Below, one piece after another: positions 6,301 through 49,388 of a stretch of 64,000 bases of DNA. Source of the stretch: Pedobacter sp. SYSU D00535 (GTDB lineage Bacteria > Bacteroidota > Bacteroidia > Sphingobacteriales > Sphingobacteriaceae). Made by a program: the position numbers and the translations under genes. Numbering within the stretch: the first letter of the stretch is position 1; every line of letters begins with the position of its first letter. The notes beneath the pieces were generated by a model. That model was not told the DNA's origin. It saw only the letters and a program-made list of their open reading frames with translations, and searched no databases. Location: the NCBI RefSeq assembly GCF_017355855.1, contig NZ_JAFEWD010000010.1, positions 62,001-126,000 on the forward strand, given 5' to 3'.

Positions 6301-6307
6301 AGAGGAG

Positions 6308-7862: not shown

Positions 7863-10800
7863 ATGGTATTTAGTATTCCCACAAGGAGGAAGATTGCATT
7901 ATCTTTAATAGGCATCTTCATCCTGGATATTGCTACACCTGCTTTAACCTACGCACTCACTTCAGGGCCAACACAGCCAGAAACACAGGCCTTTCAGCCT
8001 GCCAGTGTTTCTGATATGGTTGATCTTAGCACAGGTGATTTCAAATATAACATTCCGTTGCTCGACGTGGACGGATATCCGGTGAACCTGAACTACCAGT
8101 CCGGTATTGGAATGGATGATGAGGCGAGCTGGGTGGGCCTCGGATGGAACCTCAACATCGGTGCTATTAACAGGCAGATGAGGGGGATTCCTGACGATTC
8201 ATTCGGAGATCCTATTATTTCTGAAACCTCAATGAAGGACAAGATCACAATAGGTGGGAGAGGGAACGTTAAGGTGGAGCTAAAAGGAAAGGATAAGAAG
8301 GTAAAATTACCAAGAAAGCTAGCAAAAAAGTTTAAGATGACGGTTTCAGGCACTGTGAATGTGGGGATTTTCAACGACAATTACACAGGGATAGGAGCTG
8401 AGGTTGGAGTGAATCCGGGAATTTCAGTATCGAGTTTGAATGACGGACTGTTGACAGCTGGAATGGGACTTGGAGTTGTTTCAAATACAGTAAGTGGTGC
8501 AGGAGTAGACGTAAGCCCTTATATAAATATGTCATGGCAGAATAAGAGGAGTTGGGATTTGAGTGTAAGTGCCGGGGCAAGTTACAATCTCGGCTATAAC
8601 TCCAGGTCAGGGATGAAGGATATAACTTTAGGTAAGAGCTTTTCCGGCAGTTTTACAGGGAAAAATGTAGGAGCTGCAGCTAGTTTGGACGCTTCAACAT
8701 CATTGGTAAGTTATAACACGGAACCTGTAAGCCCTACAATCCAGGTCCCTTTTGAAACTACTCATCACTCGTTCAGCTTAGACGCAGGAGGTGCAGAACT
8801 TATCATTTTTGCCGGTGGAGGTATTGCGGGCTATCGCACTGTAAGGAAGGTAAAGGATTATAAAACTGAAAAAAAAGGCTATGGCTTTTTGTACTCCGAT
8901 AAGGCAAAGGGGCGGAATGATGCTGTGATGGATTTCATCAGAGAAAAGGATAATCCCTACATTCCTGGAACGCCGAATATAGCAATGCCGGTTCAATTAC
9001 CTGACCTGTTTACGTATACCAGTCAGACGGGTAGTGGGCAGTTTCGCTTGTATAGGAGCACGGGAGCTTTTGGCGATCCTGAAGTTCAGGATAAATCGGA
9101 AACGTATACCGGGGGCGCAGATCTGGGAATAGGTGCTTCATCCGTCCACCTCGGCTTGAAGTATTTCGATCAGAAAACCACGAATTTTTCCCGTAAGTGG
9201 GAGGACGGGAATAACTATTTAAGCAAGGGGGATTTCCAGGTGTACAAATCTGCGGAACCCCAGAAAGAGCATGTATACTTTCGGGTTGTGGGAGAAAAAA
9301 GCGTTGAAGGTCCTAACCTTAATAATTTCTTCAAAAATAATAGTCCGGTAGCCGTTCCGACCTCTGCACGTACTACCGGGGCCAACTTTCGGAAAGCAGA
9401 CGGTTCGATAGAAGCGACAGGAAATATTGAAAACAGCGAGAGACAGGGAAAGCGTACTGTTATTTCGTATCTGACGGCAAAAGAAGCCATGAAAGCAGCT
9501 TTAGATCCTGCCATCAAATTTTATCGTTTGAATGATCCTGCAACATTTGCAGTGCCTGAAGATCATAATAGTGAGTTATTGCTAGAACAGATTCTTCCTC
9601 GCGCAAAAGATTATAGGAAGGACGATCATATTTCTGAAATCAGCGTCAATGATGACGGAGGGGGGCGTACTATCTACGGTATCCCAGTGTATAATGTAGT
9701 TCAACAGGAACTCTCGTTCGCAGTCGGTAACGAAGGAAAGAACGACTATATCGTCCAAAATAAGAATCAGGTGCAGTTCACTATAGACGGGGACAAACCC
9801 TTTCACAAAAAAGGTATTGATGAGTATTTTCAACGTCAAACTTCACCAGCATACGCATCCTCATACCTCCTTACGGCTATTTTATCTCCTGACTATATAG
9901 ACCGAGGTGAAAAAGGAATTTCCGCTGAAGATGCGGGAACAGCCATCAAATTTAATTACTCTAAGTTGAATGGACTATATAAATGGCGTACCCCCTACGC
10001 TACAAATACGGCTACTCTTAGTAAAGGGCTTCTTGCAGATGCAGACGACGATAAGGCCAGTATCGTTTACGGAGAAAAGGAAATAACTTACCTCCATTCC
10101 ATCGAAACGAAAACCAAGATCGCCTACTTTATAACATCGGAAAGGCTCGACGGACTGGGCGTTCAAAACTGGCTTGGGGGAAAAAATCAGGACTTTCGCC
10201 AAAGAAGATTGACTGAAATTATCCTTTATTCTAAGGCCGACGTAAGCAAACCTATAAAGAGAGTAAAGTTTGAATACAATTATGATTTGTGTCCCGGTAC
10301 CCCTAATTCAATCGACGCTAATGGAGGGAAGTTAACTCTTAAAAGGGTTTGGTTCGAATATGGAAATACCTCAAAGGGGAAGAACCATCCCTACACATTT
10401 TCTTACAAAATGAAGATCAGCGGTATCCAACCCCAATATGAGAATATGACTGCTGACAGGTGGGGAACTTATAAACCTGATAACCAAAACCCGGTTCTTC
10501 CTGGCTTTCCTGCCCCGCAAAATGACGTGTTTCCGTATAGCAATCAAAATCAGTCGGAGGCAGACGAGAATGCAGGGTTGTGGAACCTCGAACAGGTGGG
10601 GCTTCCAACGGGCGGGACAATAAACGTCAGCTATGAATCGGACGATTACGCATACGTTCAAAATAAAGATGCTATGCGCATGCAGCACTTCGAATATCTA
10701 GTGGGGCATGACGGGAATCCGATCAGCAGCTCCGACCCGGAAGCCCTTTCGAAGGCGAAGGGACTAAGGGTAAAGCTCAGCAAACTGCCGGAAGATGCGC

Positions 10801-13800
10801 CTCCTGGAACAGATGTTACCCCCTGGTTTAAAAAGACCTATCTAAATGGGTCGGATTACTTATATACGAAGTTTTATGTGAAGATGTCAACTGCTTTCTG
10901 TGAAAGTTATGGAAAGGATTTTGACTTTGTCCCTTGTTATGCTAAAGTCCGCTCAGTTAACATATACGGGAGTGAGGTAAATGTATTTTTTGATGAGATT
11001 GATGAAAAAGGGGTTAAAGATAAGAACCCTATCTGTATAGCTGGATGGCAGAAACTAAAAAACGATTATCCAAAGTATGCAAACAAAGGCTTCAGTAACA
11101 GGGCTCAGGACGGGGATGCTCAATCTAATATAAAAAGGGCTATCAAAGCCTTGGGGAGTTCTATAACAAACTTGGGCGAGCTTACTGAAAGCTTTTATAG
11201 AAAAGCTAACAGACGGAAATTTGCAACCAGCTACCAGCATGCCTTGAGCTTCGTTCGTTTAACAGAAACCGATGGTATTAAGCTAGGAGGGGGAGTGCGG
11301 GTCAAACAGGTTCAGATTCGGGATAACTGGCAGGAAATGTCGACCTCCGCAGCTGTTGATAGAACATACGGGCAGAAGTACACCTATAGAACTAAAAGGG
11401 ACGGTCAGGAGATCAGCAGCGGGGTGGCAGCTTATGAGCCTAATATTGGGGGGGATGAAAATCCTTTGAGGGAGCCAGTGCCGTATGTTCAGGATATAAA
11501 AGGGGCGATAAGTAATTACTTCAACCTGGAAGAACCTTTTGGAGAGTCATTTTATCCGGCGCCCTTAGTTGTATATAGCAAAGTGAAGGTAGAGGATCTG
11601 GGAGCTACCGAGAGAACACCTGCTACAGGATATATCATGAACGAGTTCTACACTGCCAAAGATTTTCCTGTTCGGGTAGGAATGCTGAAGCTCGTCACGG
11701 ACCCCTACCGTCCAAGTAAGCTATATAAAGTGCTGGCCAGCACTAATATCGAGGAACTCGCACTGTCACAGGGATACAGTGTCGAGTTGAATGATATGCA
11801 TGGAAAACCAAAGGCAACCAGGATTTTTAACCAGGCAAATGCTGAAATATCCTCGATTGTTTATAATTATTTTACAGAGCCGACGGGGCCTGAAGAATGG
11901 CGTTTAAAGAACGGGGTACAGGTGGTGAACCAGGACGGAAGCGTCGTAGAACGAACAATAGGAAGGGATGTTGAATTCTTTACCGATATGCGAGAGCAAC
12001 TCTCATCTAACAGTGGCAAATCAATCAATCTCGGACTGGATTTTCCCCGCATTTTCCCAATCCCTCACTGGCCCAAGCTTAATAATAGCGACTATAAGCT
12101 GTTCCGTTCTACATCTGCGGTTAAAGTAGTGCAATATTACGGTGTTCTTAAGGAGGTAATTAAGACAGAAAATGGATCTTCTATAAGTACAGAGAACATC
12201 GCATTCGACGGACTTACGGGAGAAGCGCTCGTTACCAAAACTCAGAACGAATTTAACGACGATATCTATTCTGTAAACCTTCCTGCGTATTGGATATACA
12301 AGGGGATGGGAGCAGCCTACCAGAATCTGGGAATGTATATTGAGAACCTCGATGGATTAACCATAAGCAACTCTCCATATAATCAACTTTTAAACCCAGG
12401 AGATGAAATAATAAGTATCAGAACTGGTACTTCTTATTGGGTAGTGGAAACTAATGGAGTCAAAAGACTTATAAAAAAGGATGGAAGTATCTACAAAGGT
12501 TCGATTGCTACCGCGAAGTTAGTTAGATCGTCCTTTAGAAATCTTCTGCAGGCCACTACCGGTTCCCTTGTATGCCTTACCAATCCAATTACAAATGGGC
12601 ATTTTGCGTTTGCTTTAAATGCTGGTTTTGAAGATCTGAAAGTGATTAATGCTTCTGTCCAGACGTATGACGACAAATGGGTAGTTGAGGACATTGATGA
12701 AAAGGTCCCAGTATTAAATTCGCTTGGACTCTGTAGTGACATTCCCGGTTCAGATGGTCTAATGGATCATCGACACAACTCAATTACCCGGACAGATGGT
12801 AAGCTGCCGTCAAAATTCTGGATTGACAGGCAACAAGGCGGCGGTGGCGCATATGGAAGATGTGGGATCAAGCTATGTGAAACGAAATTTGGAGAGACAG
12901 TTGAAGCAGTTGAAGCTGGGCTTGAATCAAGTTTCGAGATCTCAACAGAAGGGGATTATGTTTTCGCTTTTACTGGAAACACGAATAGGTCCAAATGGAG
13001 GATCACAAACTGCACTGACCCAACCTTTCAAGAGATCTCGGATGTTTCCTCCGATCAGTGCAGCCTAAATCATATGCTTTTGTACGTCTATCATTTAAAA
13101 CCGGGCCGTTACATTATTGATTATTCTTTTGGAGCCTACCGACGCGCTTCGGTCTCAAACCCTTACATTTTCCCCGACAGAACTGGAGGGTTCGAAATTT
13201 ATACGAACACGTTTTCCGAATTAATTCATACTGATGACGCCGGGTCAGGGGTGAATATTATAAATAGCTCCAGAATGCTAATTGGCACAGGTAAATATCG
13301 TGCGTATCAAAAGGTGAAGCACTTTGGGAGCGATGAGGTGGAAAAGAGCTACTTACACGGTAATGTCATCGACTACTGCGACATAGATGCTCAAAGAGGG
13401 GATCCCTTCATAAACCCCTACTATAGGGGATATTTGGGAAACTGGTATCCTTTCGAGAAATATGTATTTCAAACTCAAAGAGAATACAATAATATCTTTA
13501 GGACTGATAAAAAGGGACTTGATACAAGAAATTCTGGATATTTCAGTTCCTACAACCCATTCTGGAGATATTCAAATTCGGGCTGGGTTAGAAATGGAGC
13601 TGGACAGGGCTGGCTGGCGGCAAGTGCTGTCAGCCTATATGATCGCTATGGGCAGGAATTGGAAAATAGAGATGCGTTGGGACGCTACAGCGCCGCCATC
13701 TTTGACTTTAATGGAGAGCTCCCTGCTGCCGTCGCTTCAAATGCTATGAACAGGGAAGTTTATGTGGAAGGATTTGAGGATAATAATTTTCGGAAAGAAA

Positions 13801-14486
13801 ACGGCCTAGGAAAAGGCATAACAGAATTTAGGCAGGAGAGTGGAGAGGAAATATTTAAAAGTGCGGTTAACACAAGAGCGCACTCAGGAAATTATAGTCT
13901 AGTGATTCCTGCCTCGGGTATGATACTTTCTTCCTTTACTCATGGCAATACCCATAAGGGACATTCAGGACAGTACTTCGAAATAGCCGCGACGAATGAA
14001 TACCAGTTGCTAAAAGGAAAGGGTATTTATCCAAACGGCTTTGAGCCTAAACCATCTACTGCATATATAATCAATGCCTGGGTGAAGGATGGTCATCCAG
14101 AAAATAAAAACCTGGACCTTACTTATTCTGTAAATGGACAGCTTCTGAACTTTAGATGCAAAACAGTGGTCGAGGGCTGGAAGTTGATAGAAGGAACGTT
14201 CACGAGTCCCCCAACTAACACGAATTTCAATCTCCAAATAGTAGCTTCGCCTGGAGCAGAAGTTTTCATCGATGATATCCGAATACATCCTTCTAACTCA
14301 CATGTAAAATCCTACGCGTATGATGAGAAGAACTTTAAGCTGATGGCTGAACTGGATGAGAACGGCTTTGCGACTTTTTATGAATATGATGACGAAGGCT
14401 CATTGGCAAGGGTGAAAAAAGAAACAGAGCGAGGAATTGTTACAATTAAAGAGAGCAGATCTTCCTATAAAAAGAGAGCATTGTAA
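7863..14486 (+). CDS. Giant SpvB/TcB-like secreted shell protein
   Basis: 2207 residues with an N-terminal hydrophobic signal (RRKIALSLIGIFILDIA). Residues about 50-105 (VDLSTGDFKYNIPLLDVDG, NLNYQSGIGMDDEASW, VGLGWNLNIGAI) match the opening of SpvB/TcB-type and related Bacteroidota Rhs-like proteins. A very long beta-rich body follows. Near 1966-2143 is a carbohydrate-binding-like jelly roll (AHSGNYSLVIPAS ... VFIDDIRIHP), and the last 60 residues contain a YD-type repeat (ATFYEYDDEGSLARVK). It stops just after this repeat and has neither Rhs core nor toxin, as if the chassis continued in the later genes of the operon. A role as the TcB-like half of a cocoon is inference from order and motif. 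Confidence 0.75.
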   Translation: MVFSIPTRRKIALSLIGIFILDIATPALTYALTSGPTQPETQAFQPASVSDMVDLSTGDFKYNIPLLDVDGYPVNLNYQSGIGMDDEASWVGLGWNLNIGAINRQMRGIPDDSFGDPIISETSMKDKITIGGRGNVKVELKGKDKKVKLPRKLAKKFKMTVSGTVNVGIFNDNYTGIGAEVGVNPGISVSSLNDGLLTAGMGLGVVSNTVSGAGVDVSPYINMSWQNKRSWDLSVSAGASYNLGYNSRSGMKDITLGKSFSGSFTGKNVGAAASLDASTSLVSYNTEPVSPTIQVPFETTHHSFSLDAGGAELIIFAGGGIAGYRTVRKVKDYKTEKKGYGFLYSDKAKGRNDAVMDFIREKDNPYIPGTPNIAMPVQLPDLFTYTSQTGSGQFRLYRSTGAFGDPEVQDKSETYTGGADLGIGASSVHLGLKYFDQKTTNFSRKWEDGNNYLSKGDFQVYKSAEPQKEHVYFRVVGEKSVEGPNLNNFFKNNSPVAVPTSARTTGANFRKADGSIEATGNIENSERQGKRTVISYLTAKEAMKAALDPAIKFYRLNDPATFAVPEDHNSELLLEQILPRAKDYRKDDHISEISVNDDGGGRTIYGIPVYNVVQQELSFAVGNEGKNDYIVQNKNQVQFTIDGDKPFHKKGIDEYFQRQTSPAYASSYLLTAILSPDYIDRGEKGISAEDAGTAIKFNYSKLNGLYKWRTPYATNTATLSKGLLADADDDKASIVYGEKEITYLHSIETKTKIAYFITSERLDGLGVQNWLGGKNQDFRQRRLTEIILYSKADVSKPIKRVKFEYNYDLCPGTPNSIDANGGKLTLKRVWFEYGNTSKGKNHPYTFSYKMKISGIQPQYENMTADRWGTYKPDNQNPVLPGFPAPQNDVFPYSNQNQSEADENAGLWNLEQVGLPTGGTINVSYESDDYAYVQNKDAMRMQHFEYLVGHDGNPISSSDPEALSKAKGLRVKLSKLPEDAPPGTDVTPWFKKTYLNGSDYLYTKFYVKMSTAFCESYGKDFDFVPCYAKVRSVNIYGSEVNVFFDEIDEKGVKDKNPICIAGWQKLKNDYPKYANKGFSNRAQDGDAQSNIKRAIKALGSSITNLGELTESFYRKANRRKFATSYQHALSFVRLTETDGIKLGGGVRVKQVQIRDNWQEMSTSAAVDRTYGQKYTYRTKRDGQEISSGVAAYEPNIGGDENPLREPVPYVQDIKGAISNYFNLEEPFGESFYPAPLVVYSKVKVEDLGATERTPATGYIMNEFYTAKDFPVRVGMLKLVTDPYRPSKLYKVLASTNIEELALSQGYSVELNDMHGKPKATRIFNQANAEISSIVYNYFTEPTGPEEWRLKNGVQVVNQDGSVVERTIGRDVEFFTDMREQLSSNSGKSINLGLDFPRIFPIPHWPKLNNSDYKLFRSTSAVKVVQYYGVLKEVIKTENGSSISTENIAFDGLTGEALVTKTQNEFNDDIYSVNLPAYWIYKGMGAAYQNLGMYIENLDGLTISNSPYNQLLNPGDEIISIRTGTSYWVVETNGVKRLIKKDGSIYKGSIATAKLVRSSFRNLLQATTGSLVCLTNPITNGHFAFALNAGFEDLKVINASVQTYDDKWVVEDIDEKVPVLNSLGLCSDIPGSDGLMDHRHNSITRTDGKLPSKFWIDRQQGGGGAYGRCGIKLCETKFGETVEAVEAGLESSFEISTEGDYVFAFTGNTNRSKWRITNCTDPTFQEISDVSSDQCSLNHMLLYVYHLKPGRYIIDYSFGAYRRASVSNPYIFPDRTGGFEIYTNTFSELIHTDDAGSGVNIINSSRMLIGTGKYRAYQKVKHFGSDEVEKSYLHGNVIDYCDIDAQRGDPFINPYYRGYLGNWYPFEKYVFQTQREYNNIFRTDKKGLDTRNSGYFSSYNPFWRYSNSGWVRNGAGQGWLAASAVSLYDRYGQELENRDALGRYSAAIFDFNGELPAAVASNAMNREVYVEGFEDNNFRKENGLGKGITEFRQESGEEIFKSAVNTRAHSGNYSLVIPASGMILSSFTHGNTHKGHSGQYFEIAATNEYQLLKGKGIYPNGFEPKPSTAYIINAWVKDGHPENKNLDLTYSVNGQLLNFRCKTVVEGWKLIEGTFTSPPTNTNFNLQIVASPGAEVFIDDIRIHPSNSHVKSYAYDEKNFKLMAELDENGFATFYEYDDEGSLARVKKETERGIVTIKESRSSYKKRAL

Positions 14487-14499
14487 GCAGTTTAAAGAG

Positions 14500-15291
14500 A
14501 TGAAAGGTATTGCAACAATAATAAAGAAAAGTTATTTGGCAATTGCGCTTAGCTGTATTACACTGGCATGTGTGGCAATTAGCGCAGAGGTATTCAAGTC
14601 TGAAAAAGGGGAAGCTCGTTTACCAAAAAAGGCAGGGAGGTCATTGAAGTCAGAAACTGATGAACAGCTTCTGTCCAAGATGGAAAGGGTATGCTCCATG
14701 CTGGATATTAACAGACCGGAGTGTTTTGTTGAAGGTTCAGTCAGTTCTTATACTCAAGGAAATACTTTAGACGTAGAGGGAACACTTCCTTATATCTATA
14801 GCAAGCGGGGAAATGATTTCTATTACAAATTAGGTCAAACCGAGACAATAAATGCCAAGGGCTTGTACATCTATATCGACCCGGACGCGAAGAAGGTCTT
14901 GCTCTCCGACCAAAAAGTCCTTACGGATAGTTCCCCCAATGCTATTCATGAGCTTTTTAAACAAATTTTAGAAGATCGTTTTGCTGTTAGAACTAAGTTT
15001 GAGGGTGATAATCAGGTGATTACACTTCTGAATGAGATGCATTTAAGTTGCAAAGAATATAGCGTAAGTTTTGATACGTTGAGTCTAAAGCCGAACAGGG
15101 TTTTTTGCAGGATGCCCAACTCAAATGCTGCAGGATCCACAGGGGGTGACCTTGTCCTTGATATGCGCCTGCAAACAGTTTCCAGTATTTCTCAAATTGA
15201 AAAGTTTGTGTCAAAGCCTGTGATAATTCGGGACGATAATAAATGGACGCTCAGCAAGGAGTTTCAAGGATATGAGTTGGTGATAATGTAA
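14500..15291 (+). CDS. Secreted protein of unknown function in the Rhs operon
   Basis: The start is taken as ATG 14500 (13 bp after the giant gene's stop, with AAAGAG just upstream), giving MKGIATIIKKSYLAIALS..., a signal peptide or N-terminal membrane anchor, and a 263-residue product. Earlier in-frame codons overlap the upstream gene and would bury the signal. The mature part is mixed alpha/beta with four cysteines (VCSMLD, ECFVEG, LSCKEY, FCRMP) that could form disulfides outside the cytoplasm. No family recognised. Its place between the two giant proteins suggests an accessory or chaperone role for their export or assembly. Confidence 0.55.
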   Translation: MKGIATIIKKSYLAIALSCITLACVAISAEVFKSEKGEARLPKKAGRSLKSETDEQLLSKMERVCSMLDINRPECFVEGSVSSYTQGNTLDVEGTLPYIYSKRGNDFYYKLGQTETINAKGLYIYIDPDAKKVLLSDQKVLTDSSPNAIHELFKQILEDRFAVRTKFEGDNQVITLLNEMHLSCKEYSVSFDTLSLKPNRVFCRMPNSNAAGSTGGDLVLDMRLQTVSSISQIEKFVSKPVIIRDDNKWTLSKEFQGYELVIM

Positions 15292-15373: not shown

Positions 15374-18300
15374 ATGGTAAGAATTTTACAAAAGACTTTT
15401 ATACTGATATTTCTTTTATCACTTCTGAAGACTGAAAAGAGTAAGGCAGGCGAGGAGCCTTACGAGTCGTTTCTAAGAGGCACTTTGAGCAAGGGCGCGG
15501 TAGTGTCAATACAAGACGAGAAATTTAATAATCCATCCTTCAACAAGGAACTTATCACTGATATGTCTGTGGATAATTTTATCTCACTCAGAATCTTGGA
15601 TGACACCCCTATCAATCAGTCTTTTAGCTGCACGGTATCCCTGAGGGTCGAATATTTTAGTGATCCTTCGCAAACAGATCCTACCGTAATCGATCCTGTT
15701 AATCTTACTGTCAAGTACACCAACGATGGGACTGCTGTACTTCAGGATCTGTATAAATTTAATTCAGGATACCTGGTGAATGTTCATATAACAAACATTA
15801 GTAGTCCCGAACTTGGGGAAACTCTTCCTCCGGTATTGCAAATAAGCAATAAGATCATAGTTAACAGGATATACAAATTCACTCCGGATCTTGGTTTGGG
15901 TCTAATAGGAACCCTAAATAGTAATAACAGCGTAAATACGAGCTTTGGCTCTCTTAGTTTATCATGGCCAGCTGTAATAGGTGCCCAAGAGTATGACCTG
16001 GAGTGGGTCGCAGTAGATGAAGGAAGTGAATTTGAAGCCACAGTCAACAGCATGGCTGCAGGGACTGAGGTTGCAGGAATGGCCGACAAGTTGTTCCGAA
16101 ACAATGCAACGAGGATAACAACGGATGATAACGCTTATAAACTCGCATTGGTTTTTAACTCGAAGTATATTGTTTCGAGGATAAGGCAAGTTGCTTACAA
16201 TGCTCAGGGGGTGCGGGTAGAGGGCGATTGGCAGTATAAACAGAATAATGCGTCCAGAAGCTATGCTGTTTGGAATATCGAGAATTTATGGCATGAGAAG
16301 AACTTAAACTGGCAATACTCTGTAGCCTACGCGGAAGAGGGAAAAAAGAAAGAGGTAATAAGCTACTTCGACGGTACCCTTCGGGGCCGTCAAACTGCTA
16401 CAATTAACAGTTCAGATAATGTGGCGGTGGTGCAGGAGAATATTTACGACGAGTTTGGCAGGGCTGTGGCAAATATTCTTCCCGCTCCGGTAAAAGAAAA
16501 TGCGACTGGCTCCGAAAACCTTCATTTTTTTAGGAATTTTAACAGAAATCTTAATAATCAGCCTTATACCTTTGCGGATATAGCCCAACTTTGCGAACTA
16601 AAACCTTCAGCCCTCAGTACTTCCTCAGGGGCATCAAAATACTATTCAGACAAAAACCAGTTTATAGCGGAGAATGGATTTAAAAGTAACAGAAACTTTG
16701 ATAAATACATCCCCCATGCCGAGGGGTACCCGTTTTCCATAACTCAGTACACCGCAGATAATACCGGTCGCATCAAAATTCAGGGTGGAGTAGGACAAAC
16801 CTTTCAACCTGGATTGGCAGATTTGAGTAAAACAACGAAATACTTCTACGGTACTCCTACTCAGGGAGAGTTAGACCGGCTATTTGGAAATGACGTGGGA
16901 TATGCGAACCACTACCTGAAGAATATGGTGATTGATCCTAACGGGCAGATTAGCATTAGTTATTTGAATGCCAGCGGAAAAACGATCGCAACAGCTTTAA
17001 CGGGAAATGCTCCTGATGGTATGGATGCCCTTCCCTCGTCGGAAAATGCAGCAAAAACGCAGAGAATCTCGCTGCTCACGCATCCGCAGTTTCGGTTTGA
17101 TGCGTCTGCACTCAGCCTCTCGGCGAGCACGACTCACCTGGTGTCTGCCCCGGGGAAGGTATTAATTGAATACGATATCGAAAGATTAATAGCATGTTAT
17201 ACTGAAGGGACATTTAAGCTATGCAAGGATTGTTTCTACGATCTTAGTATTAGAATCACGGATGATTGCGGAGAAGAAGTGTTTAACAATAGTAGTGCCC
17301 CCGTAAAAATTGGATATGCGGGCGTAGCGGAAGTAAAGTCTATAGAACCAGACTTCAAGAAAATCGGAGAGTATAATGTCACCTTCAATTTTGTGTTGAG
17401 CAAGCAAGGAATGGAAACTTATGCTGACAACTTTATCAGAGAAGGCCAGGTAGATGGCCAGGTGAAGAAAGAGCTGGTATTCGTGAAGAAATATCTGGAT
17501 GAGCTTGGCTTAGGAACGTTCGGAGGTTGTGAAAGATGCAAGGAAGCGTTGGGAACACAGGAGGATTTCACGGAGATGTTCAAGGAGAAGTTGCTGGAAC
17601 TGCAGCTCGCTACCACCGATATCAGTGCTTTGGAGGACTGGATCAGCGGGAAGTACCAGGTTCTGAGTCAGCAGTGTCAGGCGCTCCAAGCCTCCTGCGT
17701 GGCTCCTTCGCCTTGTGAGAAGTATATAGGCCCAATGCTAGAAGACGTTTCCCCGGGTGGCCAGTACGCCATGTTTGATACTAACAACAAGGTTCTTGAG
17801 CCTGAACTTAACGTATTAAAAAACTACTGGGCCACTGAATTTAGTCTTCCTGCAGGTTCTACGGCACCTGAGGCAGATCTTGTAACTCTTGACGACGGCT
17901 CGGTCATTTCGCCGTATGATGAGGCCTTTGTTTTGGAGACAGTAAATGGGCAAAAGGTTTTTACTGCGAAGAACCTGCTTGTACACTGGAAGCCGGAATG
18001 GGCTCACCGGTTTCTTAAATACCACCCGGAACAGTGTAAGCTGGAGTTCTGTGAGGCTAATAAGCAGTACGTAGCGTGGGATAATCTCGTTAGTGAGAAA
18101 ATAACACACTCGGAAACTTCTAGCATCCCAGGCGCAGTAGGTACCTATAATCACAATAGCCCTTCCTGGCTCCTCGACATTGATCCTTTCTTTAATACTG
18201 GGCCCGGAGCGATATATAAATTGGCAATACAAAAAGACCTCACTCAGTACACAAGTGAAGTACTGGGAGCAAGTGTTGCGACTAAGAATGTACAGCAATT

Positions 18301-18814
18301 TATCGATTACTTCCTATACTGTGGTGATGCAAAAGGTAGAACTAATAACAACAGGATTGCGGGAACAAATAATATAGACTGGGAAGCATGCAATCCAGTT
18401 GCTGACTGCCGGGTACCCAACAGAGAATGGCAACAATACCAGGAAATGTATCTGGAACTAAAGGAAGATTATTATAAAAAGTATCGTGATGAAGTTTACT
18501 GCCCTTACAAGCAGTGTCTCATAGGTATTCCTGCTGCTTTACCAATTCCAGGAGAAATAAGCGCCCGAGATTTTTATATAATGAAATCGACTTCTGTCTC
18601 TGCCTGTAGCGGCATGGAACAAAGAATCGATGTGCTGCTGATGAACGGAAAAACGTTAAAACCGACGAAAGTGCTGGTATACATCCCTGGGCAAACAGGT
18701 GTAGCAGAGCTTGATTTCAATATAGGAGAAACTGTAAAATCAGTTTGTGTGCCGTTTAACATTCCAGCGAGTGCCATGAAAGTTAGCGATGTTTTAGTAC
18801 TTGAAGAACCATGA
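15374..18814 (+). CDS. Rhs-associated protein with DUF6443-type cap domain
   Basis: 1146 residues with an N-terminal signal peptide (KTFILIFLLSLLKTEKSKAG). After beta-sandwich segments (about 60-300; LSWPAVIGAQEYDLEW is FN3-like), residues about 325-390 (EVISYFDGTLRGRQTATI, then ENIYDEFGRAVANILPAP) match the DUF6443 region that normally opens Bacteroidota Rhs proteins directly before their YD repeats. The C-terminal half has several CxxC/CxxxC pairs (CERCKE, CQALQASC). It lacks the Rhs core and any toxin; these are in the next gene, which overlaps by 4 bp (ATGA). The pair looks like one Rhs protein divided into two translationally coupled chains. Confidence 0.75.
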   Translation: MVRILQKTFILIFLLSLLKTEKSKAGEEPYESFLRGTLSKGAVVSIQDEKFNNPSFNKELITDMSVDNFISLRILDDTPINQSFSCTVSLRVEYFSDPSQTDPTVIDPVNLTVKYTNDGTAVLQDLYKFNSGYLVNVHITNISSPELGETLPPVLQISNKIIVNRIYKFTPDLGLGLIGTLNSNNSVNTSFGSLSLSWPAVIGAQEYDLEWVAVDEGSEFEATVNSMAAGTEVAGMADKLFRNNATRITTDDNAYKLALVFNSKYIVSRIRQVAYNAQGVRVEGDWQYKQNNASRSYAVWNIENLWHEKNLNWQYSVAYAEEGKKKEVISYFDGTLRGRQTATINSSDNVAVVQENIYDEFGRAVANILPAPVKENATGSENLHFFRNFNRNLNNQPYTFADIAQLCELKPSALSTSSGASKYYSDKNQFIAENGFKSNRNFDKYIPHAEGYPFSITQYTADNTGRIKIQGGVGQTFQPGLADLSKTTKYFYGTPTQGELDRLFGNDVGYANHYLKNMVIDPNGQISISYLNASGKTIATALTGNAPDGMDALPSSENAAKTQRISLLTHPQFRFDASALSLSASTTHLVSAPGKVLIEYDIERLIACYTEGTFKLCKDCFYDLSIRITDDCGEEVFNNSSAPVKIGYAGVAEVKSIEPDFKKIGEYNVTFNFVLSKQGMETYADNFIREGQVDGQVKKELVFVKKYLDELGLGTFGGCERCKEALGTQEDFTEMFKEKLLELQLATTDISALEDWISGKYQVLSQQCQALQASCVAPSPCEKYIGPMLEDVSPGGQYAMFDTNNKVLEPELNVLKNYWATEFSLPAGSTAPEADLVTLDDGSVISPYDEAFVLETVNGQKVFTAKNLLVHWKPEWAHRFLKYHPEQCKLEFCEANKQYVAWDNLVSEKITHSETSSIPGAVGTYNHNSPSWLLDIDPFFNTGPGAIYKLAIQKDLTQYTSEVLGASVATKNVQQFIDYFLYCGDAKGRTNNNRIAGTNNIDWEACNPVADCRVPNREWQQYQEMYLELKEDYYKKYRDEVYCPYKQCLIGIPAALPIPGEISARDFYIMKSTSVSACSGMEQRIDVLLMNGKTLKPTKVLVYIPGQTGVAELDFNIGETVKSVCVPFNIPASAMKVSDVLVLEEP

Positions 18815-21800
18815 AGAGATTTATACTGATTATATTAACTTTTCTATATGCCACTTATGGCCGTGGTCAAGAAGCTCAGATTACAGCATCGGGTCCTACA
18901 ACTTTTTGCGAAGGAGGTTCAGTAGTATTAACAGCGAGCCAAGGTTCAAGTTATTTGTGGAATAACGGAGCCACCGGCCAATCTATTACGGTAAATCGAT
19001 CAGGAAATTACGCAGTTACAGTTTCAGGAACTGGATGGACTTCTTCCGCTTCAATTAGGGTAACGGTAAATCCGATTCCTCTTGGTGAAGTGACTGTTAT
19101 ACGTGATAACGCAATGTTAGTCTGGGAGTTTACCTTTGACAAGGAAGGGAATATCTATGTTATTGATGGGACGAATGACAGAGTAGTAAAATGGAGACCA
19201 AATGAAGCTACCGGAGTTATTGTAGCAGGAGGGCATGGTCGCGGAAACGGTTTGCACCAACTTCATCAGCCCCAGTCGGCCGTCGTTGATAATGCTGGAA
19301 ATATTTTTATTGTCGACCACGGTAATGACAGAATTGTAAAGTGGACTCCGAACACATCATCTGGGCAAATTGTAGTACAGGGTGCACCGAATAGTCCATT
19401 GTTTGCAAATCCAAAAGGAATTACCATTGACGCTTCCGGAAACTTATATGTCGCGGATGTAAATAATCACCGGATAGCGAAGATCAATCCGACTATGGGC
19501 ACCGTGGTGACGGTGGCTGGTGGCAACGGGCAGGGATATTGGCCTAATCAGCTTTTTAATCCTGCTGATGTCGAGCTGGATTCGAAAGGGAATCTATATA
19601 TCCTAGACGTGGGGAATTACCGGATTCAGAAGTGGGTACCCGGTGAATTAACTGGTACGACAGTTGCCGGTGGAAATGGACAAGGTTCTGCTCTCAATCA
19701 ATTCGGTCTTACCTTTGGTTTTGATCTTGACGAGAACGACAACATTTATATCCAAGACGCATACCGAACATTAAAATGGATACCAGGAGCTCCGGAGGCT
19801 CAGTTGGTATATAAATCAGGAGCAAACAATGCGTATCACGTAGCATTAGACAACGAACAAAATATCTTTATCGAACAGAGGTTTAATGCCCTTCGTAAGC
19901 TAGTAAATGAGCCAATAATTAGAGCAGAGGGGCCTACAGAGTTATGTGCAGGCAAGTCTGTCACATTATCGGCTCCATATAGGGGGCAGAACAACGGACC
20001 ATATACATACAAATGGAGTAACGAAAAGGAAGGCTCTGTTATCGTGGTGAACGTCCCTGGTAAATACACCTGTACAGTTATCAATGAGTACGGGTGTTCT
20101 GTCATTTCAAATGAAATTGAGGTAACCACTATTCAAAAGCCTTTAATTACAGGCCCGGAGGTAATTTGCCCTGGGGAGACAATAACATTAAGTGCACCTC
20201 CAGGCTATACTTACTTTTGGAGTAATGGAAAAACAGAACAATCCATCCCTGTAAATTCCGTGGGAGACTATTCTGTTACTGTAACGAATGCTCTCGGCTG
20301 CTCCTTAACCTCGGATACGAAAAGGGTGACCGACGTTCCTCTCCTCTTATCGCCAACGATTACTCTGACCGGTTCTTTATGTACAAATAACTTAAGTTTG
20401 ATAACAAATAACAATTCTGACTTTAGTAGATGGTTTAAGGACGGTGTGGAGATAGGGAAAGGCGGGGCGATCAGTGTGTCCAGCCCGGGTGTTTATACCG
20501 TTAAAGTTGTGAACCCTTGCGGGCCGCAACTAACATCCGAACCAGTAACAATACATCCTCCTATTGTGCCTGCTCCCCTTATCACTGCCAACGGCACTTT
20601 TCCTATATGTGCGGGAACTTCTGTCAAGATTACTGCCGACGCATCAGAGGAAGAAGCACTTACGATTCATTGGTTCCGGAACGGAAAGAAGTATGCGAGT
20701 GGTAAAAACTTTATTGATGTAAAGCTCCCCGGGGAATATACAGCGAAAAGGACAACAGAATGTGGTAGCTCCAATTTTTCTAACCAGCTCAACGTGACGG
20801 TTGATTATAAGCTTCGAGCTAAGAAGTCTCATTTCGACGATATCGACAAAACGGTCCCTGAATACGACTACGACGCAACTGATACCCAGCAGAAGGAAGA
20901 GATGCTGGCCGAGATTGAAGATGCGTGTGAGGGACAGGCGGATGTGTGGATGCGTAATTTGGCTTCCGCGGGCCTCAGTTCTATCCAACAGACCGAACTT
21001 CGCGCAAAACTGGTGGCAATTTGTAAAGCAGGTGGAGACTTTGAGCACGGCATGGGCTCCAGCACGTTGCCTCCCGGCGCTACCGGCCCGATTCCTTCCA
21101 GCTTCGCCGATGCGATTAGACAATACGCTCCAAATGGCGTATTCACGGCCCAGCTTAATCCATGGTTGCTTGATTCTCCTTATCCCTACGACAAGCAGCC
21201 AAGTCTTTCCGGTAAGGAGATAGGAAGCAGCAGTGCAGAGATCTGTACCCGTCTACAGGAATTAAAACAGGCTTGCGGAAATCCCGCAAGTACTACAGAG
21301 TTCTATAATTGCCTTAGTCAGAAATATGAGGAAGCACTGAACATAACCGAGGAGGAATTCGCGGACCTGCTGAAGTCCTGTGACAGGTGTAATTATATCC
21401 TGAATGCCTCTATGCCTTTGCCGGCGTTTCTTGATCCGTATTCTAAAGGATGTATCACCAAGGCAGAGTTTAACCAGGCAGTTAGTGAATTGACAGGTCA
21501 GGTTCCCGGTCTGACAACCGCGGATGTAAATTACGAACAGATATTTGCAAATTACCTGAATCACAAATGGGGCTTCAGTATAGCATTCCACGTGTATCAG
21601 GATTATGCGGCGCTCCCTGATAACACCAGCAAGCTGTTATGCAATCAACCTGCCTTTCCAGGAGTCTTCGACGATGACTACGCAGATTTTAAAAAGGAGA
21701 TAGAACTGGCTGTCGGAAACGGAAGGCAAGATTATTCTAAATATATTCCGGAGATCCGCAAAAAAGCGATGCTGGAATACACTAATGTATGCTCTTCTGC

Positions 21801-24800
21801 GAAACCTTATGTAAATCTTACAGAAACCACCAAGACATATCATTACACATTATACTATTACGATCAGGCAGATAATCTGGTGAGAACCGTACCTCCCGAG
21901 GGGGTATCATTTCTGAATAGCGATCAGATAAAGATGGCTGAGAGATATCGGGAAAAGGATCTCGCAGTATGTGCATACAATGGGCCAACGTCTAATAGCA
22001 CCTTGTCTCTCGCGCAACAGTCCTTGAATACCATCATTTCAAGCAGCGCAACAAACAATACTGATGCAGCTATCGAGCTCTGGATGTATGATCAAAATGC
22101 TACGGGTGCACAAACCATTATTACTGCAGAAAAGCAGTATATGGTGCAGGTGTGCCTGGGTAACGGTAAAATCAATGCTGATATTTACACTATGCAGCCC
22201 GACGGAGTGGAAGGTGTGATAATTAGCAGGTCAAACCATATTAGCGGAAGTATCGGAACGCAGACACTTTTCAATTGGCACCACGTAGTGGTAAGAGGAA
22301 AGGACCTTGCTTCGGGTGAACTTGAACTCTGGCTAAACGGGCGCAAAGTAGATGGTACCAGTACCACTGGTGAAACGGGATGCGGTTGGGAAATAAGCAC
22401 CAGTCCTCTTGTACTGCCTCAGTTTATAGGCAACTTAAAGCACCTGCGCGTTTACAACCGGAGACTGGGGGATCAGGAGATCATCAACAATGCTGAAAGT
22501 GCTTGTTTTAACGCAAAAAGCATCGAGCAGCTGGCCTGGCATCGATTTAATATTCCGGACGAAATACTCGCCGGCGGAAGTACCAGTACCCTTGAACAAA
22601 GGTTTGAGCCAGTGTACCCTGATCACACGCTGGCTACAACCTACGCCTATAACAGCACCAACCAGGTAGTGCAACAGGTCACACCAGACGGTGGAACTTC
22701 ACGATTTTGGTACGATGATCTGAGTCGCCTGGTAGTGTCGCAGAACGAGAAGCAGCGAAAGGATACAGATAACGGAAAGGCGTTGTATAGCTATACGAAA
22801 TACGACGATCTGGGCCGCATTACGGAAGTCGGAGAGCGAAGGATGCTCACTACGGGATTTGAAGATCCTTCCTTTGTCAGCAAAGATAAATACCTGGCTT
22901 TCCTGAATGATGCTGCCGGAAGTAACCAGCAGATCACTCAAACTATTTATGACAATGCTCCTGGAGCTGAAAACGGTCCTGGGCTTCATACCGCTCTAGC
23001 TCAAAATAATCTCCGCAAGAGGGTAGCAGCAAGTGTTTATCGCGACACGCCCGAAAGCGCGGATATCAACGCCACCTACTATGACTACGATCTTAATGGT
23101 AACGTAAAAAGCTTATGGCAGCAGGTAAACGGCCTCGGCCTGAAAAAAATCGATTATGAGTACGACTTGGTAAGTGGCAAAGTAAATAAGGTATTTTACC
23201 AGAAAGGACAGGATGACCGATTCTATTATCAATATAAGTACGATGCGGAAAACAGGCTAACAGAAGTATGGAACGGCGTGGATCCAGCTAACCCTAAACA
23301 GGTGGCGTCATACCAGTACTATTACCACGGGCCGCTGGCAAGGACTGAATTGGGCGGCTTGCAAGACAAAGTGCAAGGGCTCGACTACGCATATACACTA
23401 CAAGGCTGGCTAAAGGGAGTAAATTCGTATGCCCTCAATCCTTCTGCAGATATAGGAGCCGACGGAAATTTTATGCCGAAAGACGTAATGGCTTATTCGC
23501 TGGGTTATTATAACGCAGATTATAAGCCTATTGGCGGCACTACCTCTAAAGCCTTCGCAATCAGTTATCAGGCAGGAACGAATGAGCTTGGCAGGAACTT
23601 GTACAACGGAAATATCAGCAATACCACTGTTGCATTGAGTAAGTTCAGAAATGGCGATCCGGTGGGTTACTCTTACCGTTACGACCAGCTAAACCGTTTG
23701 AAACAAATGAGGCAGACGGGCTTTGCTGCAAGTGCCAGCAGCTGGACAACCGATGCCGCCAACGAAGCCTATAGGGAGAATATCACTTATGATGGCAATG
23801 GTAATATCCTCAGCTTTTTAAGGTATGGTTCAGGCGATGGGAAACCAGTCGCAATGGACAACTTGAACTATGCTTACAGCAGGGATGCAGCGGGGAGACT
23901 ACAGAATAACCGCTTACGGCATGTTACTGATAATGTGTCTGCTGGAAGTTATGCTGAAGATATCGATAATCAGTCGCCGGACAATTATTCCTACGATGAT
24001 ATTGGTAACCTGGTTAAGGATACAGAAGGTGGTATCGATAAAATTGACTGGACAGTTTACGGAAAGATCAGGAGCATCAAAAAGACGGATGGTACTGTGA
24101 TCGCCTATAGCTACGATCCTTCAGGTAACCGTGTAAGCAAGACTTTGGGCGGGCAAACCAGTTATTACGTTCGCGATGCGCAGGGGAATAATCTGGGCTT
24201 ATACGAGAAATCAGGTAGCCAGTTGTTCTGGCGTGAGCAGGTGCTGTATGGAAGTTCAAGGGTGGGGATGTTCAGGCCCGACCTGGATCTCAACGGAGAG
24301 CAGAAAGCTACTGCCTGGTCCTTATGGGATAACCACGCCAACCTGCAGCAATATGAGCTGACGAACCATTTAGGAAACGTAATGTCTGTGATCTCTGGCC
24401 GACGTTTTGGTAGCCTGGGTAATTATACCGCAGATGTGGTTTCTCAGCAGGATTACTATCCGTTTGGGATGATCCAGCCTGGAAGAAGCTTTAGCTCCGG
24501 TGGTTACAGATACGGCTTTAATGGTAAGGAGAATGATAATGAGGTGAAGGGAGAAGGGAATCAGCAGGATTATGGGATGAGGATCTATGATCCGAGGTTG
24601 GGGCGCTTTTTGAGTGAAGATCCTTTGACAAGAAAGTACTCCTTTTTGACACCCTATCAGTTCGCGAGCAACTCTCCTATTATGGGTATCGACGAAGACG
24701 GCGGGGAGTTGAAGTATTACAACATCGACTGGGTGACTAGAAATGGTAAAAGTCAACTTTCGATTGCGAACCAGATCAAAACCGATAATGTGGCCTTAGG

Positions 24801-25455
24801 AGTTGTACTACGCCTTTCAAATGGATTGTTCTCTCAAGATATTAAACTAGGTGATCTTAACTACTCTACGCTGGGATTAAGTGCATTTGTGGTAGGCTAC
24901 AACGGTCAGTGGAAAGTTTTACCTAGTAGTATCGACCCTACTAATCTTCCCAATTTGAATGACCCGATCTGGGAAACTTTCGAGAGTCCGAGCGATTACA
25001 AGAGCCGAATTTATAACAATGCGCAAAATCTTATTGAAGGAGTATCTGCTTTATCAGATTTAAGAGATGTATATAAAACTCTTAAAAATCCAGTCAATAA
25101 AAGCAAATTGAATGCAAATGAAGTTAATAGTATACTTGCAAATAAATACAGCAAGAATAGGCCTAAGTATGGAAAAAATCAGGTTGAGGAGGTATGGGAG
25201 GCTGCTAAGGATGCAGATGGGAAAGTTTATGATCCAAATACCGGTCGCGAACTTTTCTGGGATAAGTCCAAAAAGCGGAATGGACAATGGGATATGGGAC
25301 ATAAACCAAAGTACAAGTATAAGGACGAACTAGAGCGTTTAAGACGTGGTGAAATTACGGAAGAGCAGTTCTTAAAGAATTACAAAGAATCAAAGAATTA
25401 TCGACCAGAAGGTGTCAGTGAAAATAGGTCTAGAAAGTATGATAAGAAAAAATAA
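18811..25455 (+). CDS. Rhs-repeat polymorphic toxin with GH-E (HNH/Endo VII) nuclease tip
   Basis: 2214 residues with an N-terminal signal peptide. In order: an Ig-like domain (about 30-90), NHL-type beta-propeller repeats (about 100-370, for example NIYVIDGTNDRVVKW), Ig-like modules starting with (I/L)CxGxxVT-type strands (about 375-640), a helical Cys-containing part (about 690-1020), a LamG-like jelly roll (about 1075-1225, DAAIELWMYD ... WHHVVVRG), YD repeats (about 1260-1870), and the Rhs core (about 1880-1965, DPRLGRFLSEDPLT, YQFASNSPIMGIDEDG). The variable tip ends in VYDPNTGRELFWD, GQWDMGHKPKYKY and NYRPEGVSENRSRKY, the signature of the GH-E nuclease family (PF14410), a predicted DNase. 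The A+T-rich tip differs from the YD body, as expected for swapped toxin modules. Confidence 0.9.
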   Translation: MKRFILIILTFLYATYGRGQEAQITASGPTTFCEGGSVVLTASQGSSYLWNNGATGQSITVNRSGNYAVTVSGTGWTSSASIRVTVNPIPLGEVTVIRDNAMLVWEFTFDKEGNIYVIDGTNDRVVKWRPNEATGVIVAGGHGRGNGLHQLHQPQSAVVDNAGNIFIVDHGNDRIVKWTPNTSSGQIVVQGAPNSPLFANPKGITIDASGNLYVADVNNHRIAKINPTMGTVVTVAGGNGQGYWPNQLFNPADVELDSKGNLYILDVGNYRIQKWVPGELTGTTVAGGNGQGSALNQFGLTFGFDLDENDNIYIQDAYRTLKWIPGAPEAQLVYKSGANNAYHVALDNEQNIFIEQRFNALRKLVNEPIIRAEGPTELCAGKSVTLSAPYRGQNNGPYTYKWSNEKEGSVIVVNVPGKYTCTVINEYGCSVISNEIEVTTIQKPLITGPEVICPGETITLSAPPGYTYFWSNGKTEQSIPVNSVGDYSVTVTNALGCSLTSDTKRVTDVPLLLSPTITLTGSLCTNNLSLITNNNSDFSRWFKDGVEIGKGGAISVSSPGVYTVKVVNPCGPQLTSEPVTIHPPIVPAPLITANGTFPICAGTSVKITADASEEEALTIHWFRNGKKYASGKNFIDVKLPGEYTAKRTTECGSSNFSNQLNVTVDYKLRAKKSHFDDIDKTVPEYDYDATDTQQKEEMLAEIEDACEGQADVWMRNLASAGLSSIQQTELRAKLVAICKAGGDFEHGMGSSTLPPGATGPIPSSFADAIRQYAPNGVFTAQLNPWLLDSPYPYDKQPSLSGKEIGSSSAEICTRLQELKQACGNPASTTEFYNCLSQKYEEALNITEEEFADLLKSCDRCNYILNASMPLPAFLDPYSKGCITKAEFNQAVSELTGQVPGLTTADVNYEQIFANYLNHKWGFSIAFHVYQDYAALPDNTSKLLCNQPAFPGVFDDDYADFKKEIELAVGNGRQDYSKYIPEIRKKAMLEYTNVCSSAKPYVNLTETTKTYHYTLYYYDQADNLVRTVPPEGVSFLNSDQIKMAERYREKDLAVCAYNGPTSNSTLSLAQQSLNTIISSSATNNTDAAIELWMYDQNATGAQTIITAEKQYMVQVCLGNGKINADIYTMQPDGVEGVIISRSNHISGSIGTQTLFNWHHVVVRGKDLASGELELWLNGRKVDGTSTTGETGCGWEISTSPLVLPQFIGNLKHLRVYNRRLGDQEIINNAESACFNAKSIEQLAWHRFNIPDEILAGGSTSTLEQRFEPVYPDHTLATTYAYNSTNQVVQQVTPDGGTSRFWYDDLSRLVVSQNEKQRKDTDNGKALYSYTKYDDLGRITEVGERRMLTTGFEDPSFVSKDKYLAFLNDAAGSNQQITQTIYDNAPGAENGPGLHTALAQNNLRKRVAASVYRDTPESADINATYYDYDLNGNVKSLWQQVNGLGLKKIDYEYDLVSGKVNKVFYQKGQDDRFYYQYKYDAENRLTEVWNGVDPANPKQVASYQYYYHGPLARTELGGLQDKVQGLDYAYTLQGWLKGVNSYALNPSADIGADGNFMPKDVMAYSLGYYNADYKPIGGTTSKAFAISYQAGTNELGRNLYNGNISNTTVALSKFRNGDPVGYSYRYDQLNRLKQMRQTGFAASASSWTTDAANEAYRENITYDGNGNILSFLRYGSGDGKPVAMDNLNYAYSRDAAGRLQNNRLRHVTDNVSAGSYAEDIDNQSPDNYSYDDIGNLVKDTEGGIDKIDWTVYGKIRSIKKTDGTVIAYSYDPSGNRVSKTLGGQTSYYVRDAQGNNLGLYEKSGSQLFWREQVLYGSSRVGMFRPDLDLNGEQKATAWSLWDNHANLQQYELTNHLGNVMSVISGRRFGSLGNYTADVVSQQDYYPFGMIQPGRSFSSGGYRYGFNGKENDNEVKGEGNQQDYGMRIYDPRLGRFLSEDPLTRKYSFLTPYQFASNSPIMGIDEDGGELKYYNIDWVTRNGKSQLSIANQIKTDNVALGVVLRLSNGLFSQDIKLGDLNYSTLGLSAFVVGYNGQWKVLPSSIDPTNLPNLNDPIWETFESPSDYKSRIYNNAQNLIEGVSALSDLRDVYKTLKNPVNKSKLNANEVNSILANKYSKNRPKYGKNQVEEVWEAAKDADGKVYDPNTGRELFWDKSKKRNGQWDMGHKPKYKYKDELERLRRGEITEEQFLKNYKESKNYRPEGVSENRSRKYDKKK

Positions 25456-25456
25456 T

Positions 25457-25930
25457 ATGGAGGAAATTTTAAGATTTATCAAGGAACGGAATATACCAAT
25501 GGTTAAGAAACATATTGGCAAGGCAGATAGACAAGCTGTTGACAGTTATGGGGATTCAGCAGTTCACCTTGCGGTTTTAGAAGAAAGTCATGATATCTTG
25601 CACCTCCTTATCCAAAATGGATTTCCCGTAAACTTGAGGAATGAGGAAGGTAAAACACCCCTCCACTTTTGTGCGGAATATAATCTTCTCAATCTCGCGG
25701 AAATGATTTTGAATGCCGGAGGCGACTTGTCGATTCAAGACAACTATGGTAATCAACCGTTATGGACCGCCGTATTCAACGTGAAAGGACGGCTTACACA
25801 TTTGGCGCTCGTAAGGCGTTTTCTAGTCGCGGGAGCTGATAGAGATCATAAGAATCACGCAGGAATGACTCCCATTTTGTTTGCGAAAAGGGTTGGCTAT
25901 TTGCCTCTTGTGTCGTTGCTAGAAAACTAG
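25457..25930 (+). CDS. Ankyrin-repeat protein, likely immunity protein to the GH-E toxin
   Basis: The start is taken as ATG 25457, one base after the toxin stop; the longer frame from 25412 would overlap the toxin. The 157 residues form about four ankyrin repeats (GDSAVHLAVLEESHDILHLL, GKTPLHFCAEYNLLNLAEMI, GNQPLWTAVFNVKG, GMTPILFAKRVGYLPL). There is no signal peptide, so it is cytoplasmic, where an immunity protein must meet the nuclease. Ankyrin proteins are a known class of immunity protein directly 3' of polymorphic toxins. The repeat fold is clear; the immunity role rests on position. Confidence 0.8.
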   Translation: MEEILRFIKERNIPMVKKHIGKADRQAVDSYGDSAVHLAVLEESHDILHLLIQNGFPVNLRNEEGKTPLHFCAEYNLLNLAEMILNAGGDLSIQDNYGNQPLWTAVFNVKGRLTHLALVRRFLVAGADRDHKNHAGMTPILFAKRVGYLPLVSLLEN

Positions 25931-25935
25931 GAAAT

Positions 25936-26403
25936 ATGGGAGGTGTGAAAGTTTATCTATTGTTTTTCTTGCATTTAGTTTCTTGCATTAACGTTGAGAA
26001 CCGGGAGCAGACGCGCTCCTCGCGAAAGATATATGTATTTAAACTTGATCATCAAAAGAAATCGTCCAACTTAATTACAGGTTTAATGATGGAAGGAGAC
26101 GTCGTTACAACTTTGTATTTAGACTCGCTATATTTTAGGCCCACAACTAGCGTTACTAGAATTGTCAAAGACAGTAGAACTGTTCTTTTTTTACGTTCTA
26201 TATCTTCTGATAATTTGAAGCTCCTTAATACTTCAATGAAGTGCGATTGCGTTGATCGAACGACCAGCGAATATGTAATTAAGATTGTAGAAGGGGAAGA
26301 TGTTCAGGAGTTTAAATTTAAAGAGATTTATGGATGTCCGCCACGCAGCCAATGTTCTTTCTTTGATCAGTTGAGGGATTGCTTTATAAGACTCCCGTCG
26401 TGA
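25936..26403 (+). CDS. Putative lipoprotein downstream of the ankyrin immunity gene
   Basis: 155 residues starting 5 bp after the ankyrin gene, so probably co-transcribed. The N-terminus KVYLLFFLHLVSC is a lipoprotein signal with lipobox LVSC. The mature chain has a short basic stretch and a C-terminal part with four cysteines in a CDC and CPPRSQC arrangement. No family recognised. It could be a second, envelope-side protective protein or an unrelated last gene of the operon. Confidence 0.55.
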   Translation: MGGVKVYLLFFLHLVSCINVENREQTRSSRKIYVFKLDHQKKSSNLITGLMMEGDVVTTLYLDSLYFRPTTSVTRIVKDSRTVLFLRSISSDNLKLLNTSMKCDCVDRTTSEYVIKIVEGEDVQEFKFKEIYGCPPRSQCSFFDQLRDCFIRLPS

Positions 26404-39984: not shown

Positions 39985-39991
39985 TAAACCT

Positions 39992-49251: not shown

Positions 49252-49388
49252 GAATCTATTATGATAATCCAATAGGATAGCTAAAGATAATATTTTTAAC
49301 AGCCCTAATCTTGATTCCCTCTCAAATCGGCTTTATCGAAAATTTTTCAACTGACAATATCGACCGAACAATTCCAACAAAAAATTAC

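What the first reader, a model, noticed from the sequence alone, without database searches (positions are those of the whole stretch)
15374..25455. Rhs protein split in two: cap in one chain, YD repeats, core and toxin in the next
Seen: the DUF6443-type motif (SYFDGTLRGRQ, YDEFGRA) sits in the 1146-residue protein, whereas the YD repeats and Rhs core are in the next gene, coupled by an ATGA overlap. Known: DUF6443 normally opens the same chain that carries the YD repeats. Inference: a two-chain (with the 7863 gene possibly three-chain) cocoon.
Basis: partly seen in the sequence, partly recalled or inferred. Interest (0 to 1): 0.65.

Follow-up and report, generated by a model that had tools for sequence, protein, structure and literature searches.

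The report
Toxin shell split into two proteins
A giant Rhs toxin that relatives make as one protein is here encoded as two exported proteins, each keeping its half of what is probably one hollow shell, inside a conserved and apparently undescribed gene cassette of Bacteroidota.

Summary
DUF6443 is found only in the 1146-aa protein (P2). YD repeats, Rhs core and a GH-E nuclease tip are in the next gene (P3), which starts in an ATGA overlap. Of 183 distinct relatives, 161 carry both halves in one chain. P2 aligns to its very end with the fused chains; P3 aligns from about residue 671 on. The break falls in a 1000-1500-aa insertion between two shell strands, and the new P3 N-terminus brings a signal peptide, an NHL propeller and Ig domains. 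The tree needs three changes between fused and split; in the five readable split loci elsewhere the second chain also starts like a signal peptide. Both window halves keep the conserved residues, so this is not decay. The P3 shell folds like TcC, one half of a two-chain Tc cocoon, and its conserved first strand is unfolded in the P3-only model. I read it as one shell closed by two separately exported chains. Contact is inferred, not shown; co-folding was not possible. P1 (7863) precedes DUF6443 in 135 of 138 loci, so a three-chain shell is possible but untested. The operon also holds a LolA-like gene, a lipoprotein and a probable outer-membrane barrel.

The parts
3718..6300 (+). 860-aa protein with signal peptide, probable outer-membrane beta-barrel; conserved first gene of the cassette
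   Evidence: Upstream of P1 in 34 of 56 loci with at least 2 kb of upstream sequence; in 200 genomes found only in the four that hold the close form of the system, always beside it. Barrel is inferred from the sequence only; no Pfam, NCBIfam or PDB hit.
6308..7405 (+). 365-aa exported protein with weak Fn3-like similarity
   Evidence: Upstream of P1 in 51 of 60 loci; weak fn3 match.
7402..7836 (+). 144-aa lipoprotein
   Evidence: Lipobox-like LFGLSGC in the sequence; upstream of P1 in 67 of 87 loci.
7863..14486 (+). P1, 2207 aa, signal peptide, SpvB/TcB-like N-terminus (weak), YD-like conserved C-terminus
   Evidence: Its C-terminal module lies upstream of DUF6443 genes in 135 of 138 loci; SpvB hit in 2 of 21 and RHS_repeat in 4 of 21 members.
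14500..15291 (+). P6, 263-aa exported protein, LolA3-like (ATG at 14500; the ORF list gives TTG at 14437)
   Evidence: NCBIfam LolA3_fam E 1.2e-12, below the curated cut-off; between P1 and P2 in 116 of 138 loci.
15374..18814 (+). P2, first chain: signal peptide, beta-sandwich and FN3-like domains, DUF6443, inserted Cys-rich helical domain, C-terminal beta domain
   Evidence: homologous to the N-terminal 1140-1190 residues of fused relatives.
16292..17008 (+). Conserved DUF6443 region of P2 (residues 307-545); Pfam match at 16328-16516
18811..25455 (+). P3, second chain: signal peptide, Ig/PKD, NHL propeller, Ig domains, conserved linker, YD shell, Rhs core, GH-E nuclease tip
18811..20820 (+). 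P3 residues 1-670: N-terminus with no counterpart in fused relatives (signal peptide, NHL propeller about 19093-19905, Ig-like domains)
   Evidence: Similarity to fused chains begins at P3 644-703, one exception at 573; NHL; no NHL donor found in the genome.
21811..21960 (+). First conserved YD strand of P3 (residues 1001-1050, YHYTLYYYD...RTVPPEG)
   Evidence: Near-invariant in 56 sequences but pLDDT 40-51 in the P3-only model.
22606..24210 (+). YD-repeat shell of P3 (residues 1266-1800)
24454..24702 (+). Rhs core of P3 (residues 1882-1964)
   Evidence: TIGR03696, 49.8 bits.
25216..25443 (+). GH-E HNH/endonuclease VII toxin tip (residues 2136-2211)
   Evidence: PF14410, 81 bits, full-length match.
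25412..25930 (+). 172-aa ankyrin-repeat protein without signal peptide, candidate immunity protein (true start probably inside the ORF)
   Evidence: a 41% identical relative sits behind the toxin of L079.
25936..26403 (+). 155-aa lipoprotein after the toxin
   Evidence: Lipobox-like sequence; lipoprotein-like genes also follow second chains in L176, L178 and L179.

Best explanation
The gene pair 15374-18814 and 18811-25455 is one Bacteroidota Rhs polymorphic toxin whose single ancestral chain was broken into two. The break lies in a large insertion between the last DUF6443 hairpin and the first YD strand, so cutting it leaves the shell strands intact. The second chain gained its own start, signal peptide, Ig domains and NHL propeller. 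Both chains are probably translated in a coupled way (ATGA), exported separately and, I infer, join in the periplasm or at the surface, where P2 supplies the strands that complete the N-terminal end of the TcC-like shell of P3. The Rhs core is expected to cut off the GH-E nuclease tip inside the shell; the ankyrin protein is the likely immunity factor. Shown: domain assignment, homology to fused chains, three changes between fused and split on the tree, signal-peptide-like second starts, lack of decay, conserved operon. Inferred: chain contact, export route, self-cleavage, toxicity and target.
For: DUF6443 only in P2; YD, core and GH-E only in P3. Fused relatives L032-L035 align with P2 to residues 1085-1140 and with P3 from 669-701, in one chain. 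No separate second YD gene was found in the 80 named relatives. 161 of 183 distinct DUF6443 genes are fused. The tree needs three changes for the split state; starred branches force three. Second chains of five other split loci start like signal peptides. Window rows keep 96.8% and 98.7% of the conserved positions. P2 model pLDDT 86. The P3 shell matches TcC chains 4igl and 6l7i (TMt 0.63-0.64). The conserved first strand of P3 is at pLDDT 40-51 without P2. The three strongest P2-P3 couplings all fall between DUF6443 residues 502-528 and P3 1021-1025.
Against: No complex was modelled. Single coupling scores (6.6-6.9) do not exceed row-shuffle maxima (5.1-8.1); only their clustering is unusual, and shared ancestry is not removed. 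Low confidence at the start of the P3 fragment could partly be an end effect. Foldseek superpositions of P2 are poor globally (TM below 0.2).
Confidence: 0.62

Rival explanations
1. P3 works alone, like bacterial Teneurin-like proteins: its new Ig and NHL domains replace the DUF6443 plug, and P2 is left over or has another task.
For: P3 has signal peptide, NHL propeller, YD shell, core and HNH tip, the order seen in Teneurin-like proteins.
Against: P2 is undecayed. NHL lies about 640 residues before the first shell strand. P3 keeps the linker found in fused chains, and its first shell strand is unpaired in the model. The window's NHL profile found nothing in the other split loci.
Confidence: 0.17
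2. P1, P2 and P3 together form one three-chain cocoon, with P1 in the TcB place. This extends the best explanation rather than excluding it.
For: P1 lies upstream in 135 of 138 loci; its C-terminus is YD-like and nearly invariant; weak SpvB and RHS_repeat hits; the P3 shell is TcC-like, and TcC needs TcB.
Against: No P1-DUF6443 fusion was found, no PDB match, and P1 was not folded.
Confidence: 0.35
3. The split is an assembly or sequencing frameshift, or a decaying pseudogene.
For: Frameshifted or truncated copies do exist in relatives (L058, L159, L161).
Against: The new start has a signal peptide and 670 residues without counterpart in fused chains; conserved residues are kept; the same arrangement recurs in other lineages.
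Confidence: 0.04

Closest known systems
TcB-TcC (BC) cocoon of ABC/Tc toxins
   Same: Two chains make one Rhs shell; TcC-like shell with Rhs core and variable toxin tip; the P3 shell matches TcC chains.
   Different: The break here is after DUF6443, in a different place. Each chain has a signal-peptide-like start. A LolA-like protein and a probable outer-membrane protein are in the operon. No TcA-like gene was searched for.
DUF6443 Rhs proteins of Bacteroidota (fused form, e.g. Pedobacter zeae L068, Mucilaginibacter sp. L074)
   Same: Same domains in the same order, 45-48% identity over P2, same operon.
   Different: Fused forms are one chain of about 2600-4100 aa and have no match to the NHL domain found here.
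Bacterial Teneurin-like proteins (PMC13018210)
   Same: NHL propeller, YD shell, polymorphic tip; often a signal peptide.
   Different: One chain with an FN-plug next to NHL; reported from six phyla that do not include Bacteroidota; no DUF6443 partner.
TANFOR polymorphic toxins of Bacteroidetes (PMC7073777)
   Same: Large exported polymorphic toxins of Bacteroidetes.
   Different: No TANFOR match and no T9SS sorting domain was found in P1, P2 or P3.

Membership tests
Rhs polymorphic toxin | YD/RHS repeats followed by the Rhs core | tested here: met
   PF05593 and TIGR03696 in P3.
Rhs polymorphic toxin | Variable toxin tip after the core with an adjacent immunity gene | tested here: met
   Similarity to relatives ends after the core at about 1966-1993; GH-E tip; ankyrin gene next door. 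Immunity function not tested.
Rhs polymorphic toxin | Aspartyl self-cleavage at the core | not testable with these tools
   PIMGIDEDG follows RIYDPRLGRFLSEDP, a variant of the published PxxxxDPxG; cleavage needs an assay.
DUF6443 Rhs protein | DUF6443 and YD repeats in one chain | tested here: not met
   Separate ORFs; fused in 161 of 183 relatives.
Tc toxin BC complex | TcC-like half-shell | tested here: met
   TMt 0.63-0.64 to TcC chains.
Tc toxin BC complex | TcB partner with SpvB domain and propeller | tested here: inconclusive
   P1: SpvB hit in 2 of 21 members, best E 0.043; no PDB match.
Tc toxin BC complex | TcA pore subunit | not tested
   No TcA search was made.
Teneurin-like protein | FN-plug and NHL directly before the YD shell in one chain | tested here: not met
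   NHL at P3 95-365, first shell strand at about 1004; TEN_NHL below cut-off.
T9SS cargo | C-terminal T9SS sorting domain | tested here: not met
   None in P1, P2 or P3.

The most novel reading that the evidence does not exclude
The cassette encodes its own export or surface-display apparatus: a probable outer-membrane barrel, an Fn3-like protein, a lipoprotein and a LolA-like chaperone that move P1, P2 and P3 one by one to the outside, where they assemble into one toxin cocoon. Assembly from separate chains would explain why fission is tolerated repeatedly.
Probability: 0.3. Interest if true: 0.8.

Novelty: new variant of a known kind. Interest (0 to 1): 0.58.

Why it matters
Rhs shells are thought of as one chain, or as TcB plus TcC. 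Fission in the same region in three lineages shows where the shell can be opened without loss, and gives a way to ask whether a cocoon can close outside the cytoplasm from exported pieces. How Rhs toxins of Bacteroidota with signal peptides leave the cell is open; the conserved operon offers specific genes to delete.

Tried and rejected
Heterodimer prediction: the tool folds one chain of at most 1200 residues. Search for an NHL donor gene in the genome: only weak Ig-like hits. A T9SS sorting domain at the P2 C-terminus was considered and dropped: the same domain is internal in fused chains. T9SS cargo, TANFOR toxin and assembly error were considered and rejected as above. L159, L161, L058, L119 and L173 were not counted as splits (frameshift, truncation or contig end).

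Full report
Observation. The two ORFs, their ATGA overlap and the motifs are as described. Pfam places DUF6443 in P2 only, and RHS repeats, NHL repeats and the GH-E nuclease in P3; the Rhs core is in P3. The conserved DUF6443 region runs to about P2 residue 545 in alignments of 31 and 76 sequences, so the first chain holds all of it.

Relatives. In 200 genomes, 36 have a P2 match. Longer stretches showed that most carry P2 and P3 as one chain. In L033 and L034 P2 aligns to its residue 1140 and P3 resumes at 698-701. A scan of 84,980 genomes gave 347 relatives; the 80 kept are named, mainly Pedobacter, Mucilaginibacter, Chitinophaga and Niastella. In these, wherever the contig reaches far enough, DUF6443 and YD are in one ORF; a few end early at a contig end, and L119 ends early inside its contig. 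After adding more genomes, 161 of 183 distinct DUF6443 genes are fused. Six were read with a signal-peptide second chain (window included); a seventh (L164) is in the same clade but ends at its contig end; the rest are frameshifted, truncated or cut by contig ends.

Fission. A tree of 80 DUF6443 regions needs three changes between fused and split: the window sits among 25 fused rows (100/99), L041 beside fused L038 (100/96), and five rows form one clade (100/96). The bootstrap had not fully settled, so support values are rough, and the count cannot by itself tell gain from loss. In three members of that clade one to three tail-fibre-like genes lie between the two chains. Second chains in the five readable loci have YD strands and signal-peptide-like starts, and four reach the core within the stretch read. 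No SignalP was available; a hydrophobicity control is.

Structure. P2 models well (pLDDT 86): beta domains, DUF6443 strands, a helical Cys-rich insertion and a C-terminal beta domain. P3 995-2132 models at 76.6, with most of the shell above 80. Foldseek puts the P3 shell close to TcC chains; P2 finds the single-chain Rhs cocoon SGS1 first (E 1e-9) but with poor global superposition. SGS1 is a Tc-like Rhs shell decorated by domains inserted into the repeat sequence (PMC9935623), the same kind of place in which the window's chain is broken. The near-invariant first strand of P3 is unfolded in the P3-only model, as expected if its partner is in P2. Coupling analysis agrees in location but not in strength.

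Surroundings. P1 precedes DUF6443 genes in 135 of 138 loci and P6 in 116. Three more genes upstream are conserved: a probable barrel, an Fn3-like protein and a lipoprotein. The barrel gene occurs in four of 200 genomes, exactly those with the close form of the system and each time just upstream of it (Fisher p 1.5e-8 with the close group defined after seeing the P2 hits, 9e-4 against all P2-positive genomes). The cassette lies on a conjugative element with an integrase by tRNA-Met and relaxase, TraG, TraJ and TraM genes.

Literature. No paper in the library mentions DUF6443, and searches for split Rhs shells or this operon found nothing matching. The library lacks most subscription journals, so this is not proof of novelty. 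The two-chain BC cocoon is established (PMC10317148). Teneurin-like proteins are single-chain and were reported from phyla other than Bacteroidota (PMC13018210).

Verdict. The split is real, recurrent and not decay. The best reading is one shell from two separately exported chains. Contact, export route and activity remain to be tested.

Noticed in passing
487-58134: The cassette sits on a CTnDOT-type conjugative element: tRNA-Met 487-561, integrase 843-2063, relaxase 38722-39984, coupling protein 39923-41995, TraG 50430-52904, TraJ 54875-56083, TraM 56971-58134.
   Followed up: partly
3718-7836: Three genes upstream of P1 (probable outer-membrane barrel, Fn3-like protein, lipoprotein) are conserved with the Rhs cassette and look dedicated to it.
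   Followed up: partly
14500-15291: A LolA3-like exported protein lies between P1 and the DUF6443 gene in most relatives.
   Followed up: partly
L032 18892-19719; L056 1059-2045; L066 1420-2661; L091 19019-19924: Orphan Rhs core plus toxin cassettes lie downstream of or near the main toxin gene in many relatives.
   Followed up: no
L061 9958-12521; L063 11660-12544; L064 11122-12105: One to three exported tail-fibre-like genes sit between the two chains in one split clade; the window has a tail-collar protein at 27237-28904 and a fibre-like protein at 29627-33373 downstream.
   Followed up: no
45494-49272: A UvrD-type helicase and an OLD-like AAA/TOPRIM protein on the minus strand, a pair resembling Gabija-type phage defence, lie inside the conjugative element.
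   Followed up: no
L066 3817-9480: A relative that begins within P2 (matching residues 1003-1141) and runs into P3, lacking DUF6443; possibly a recombinant or truncated copy.
   Followed up: no
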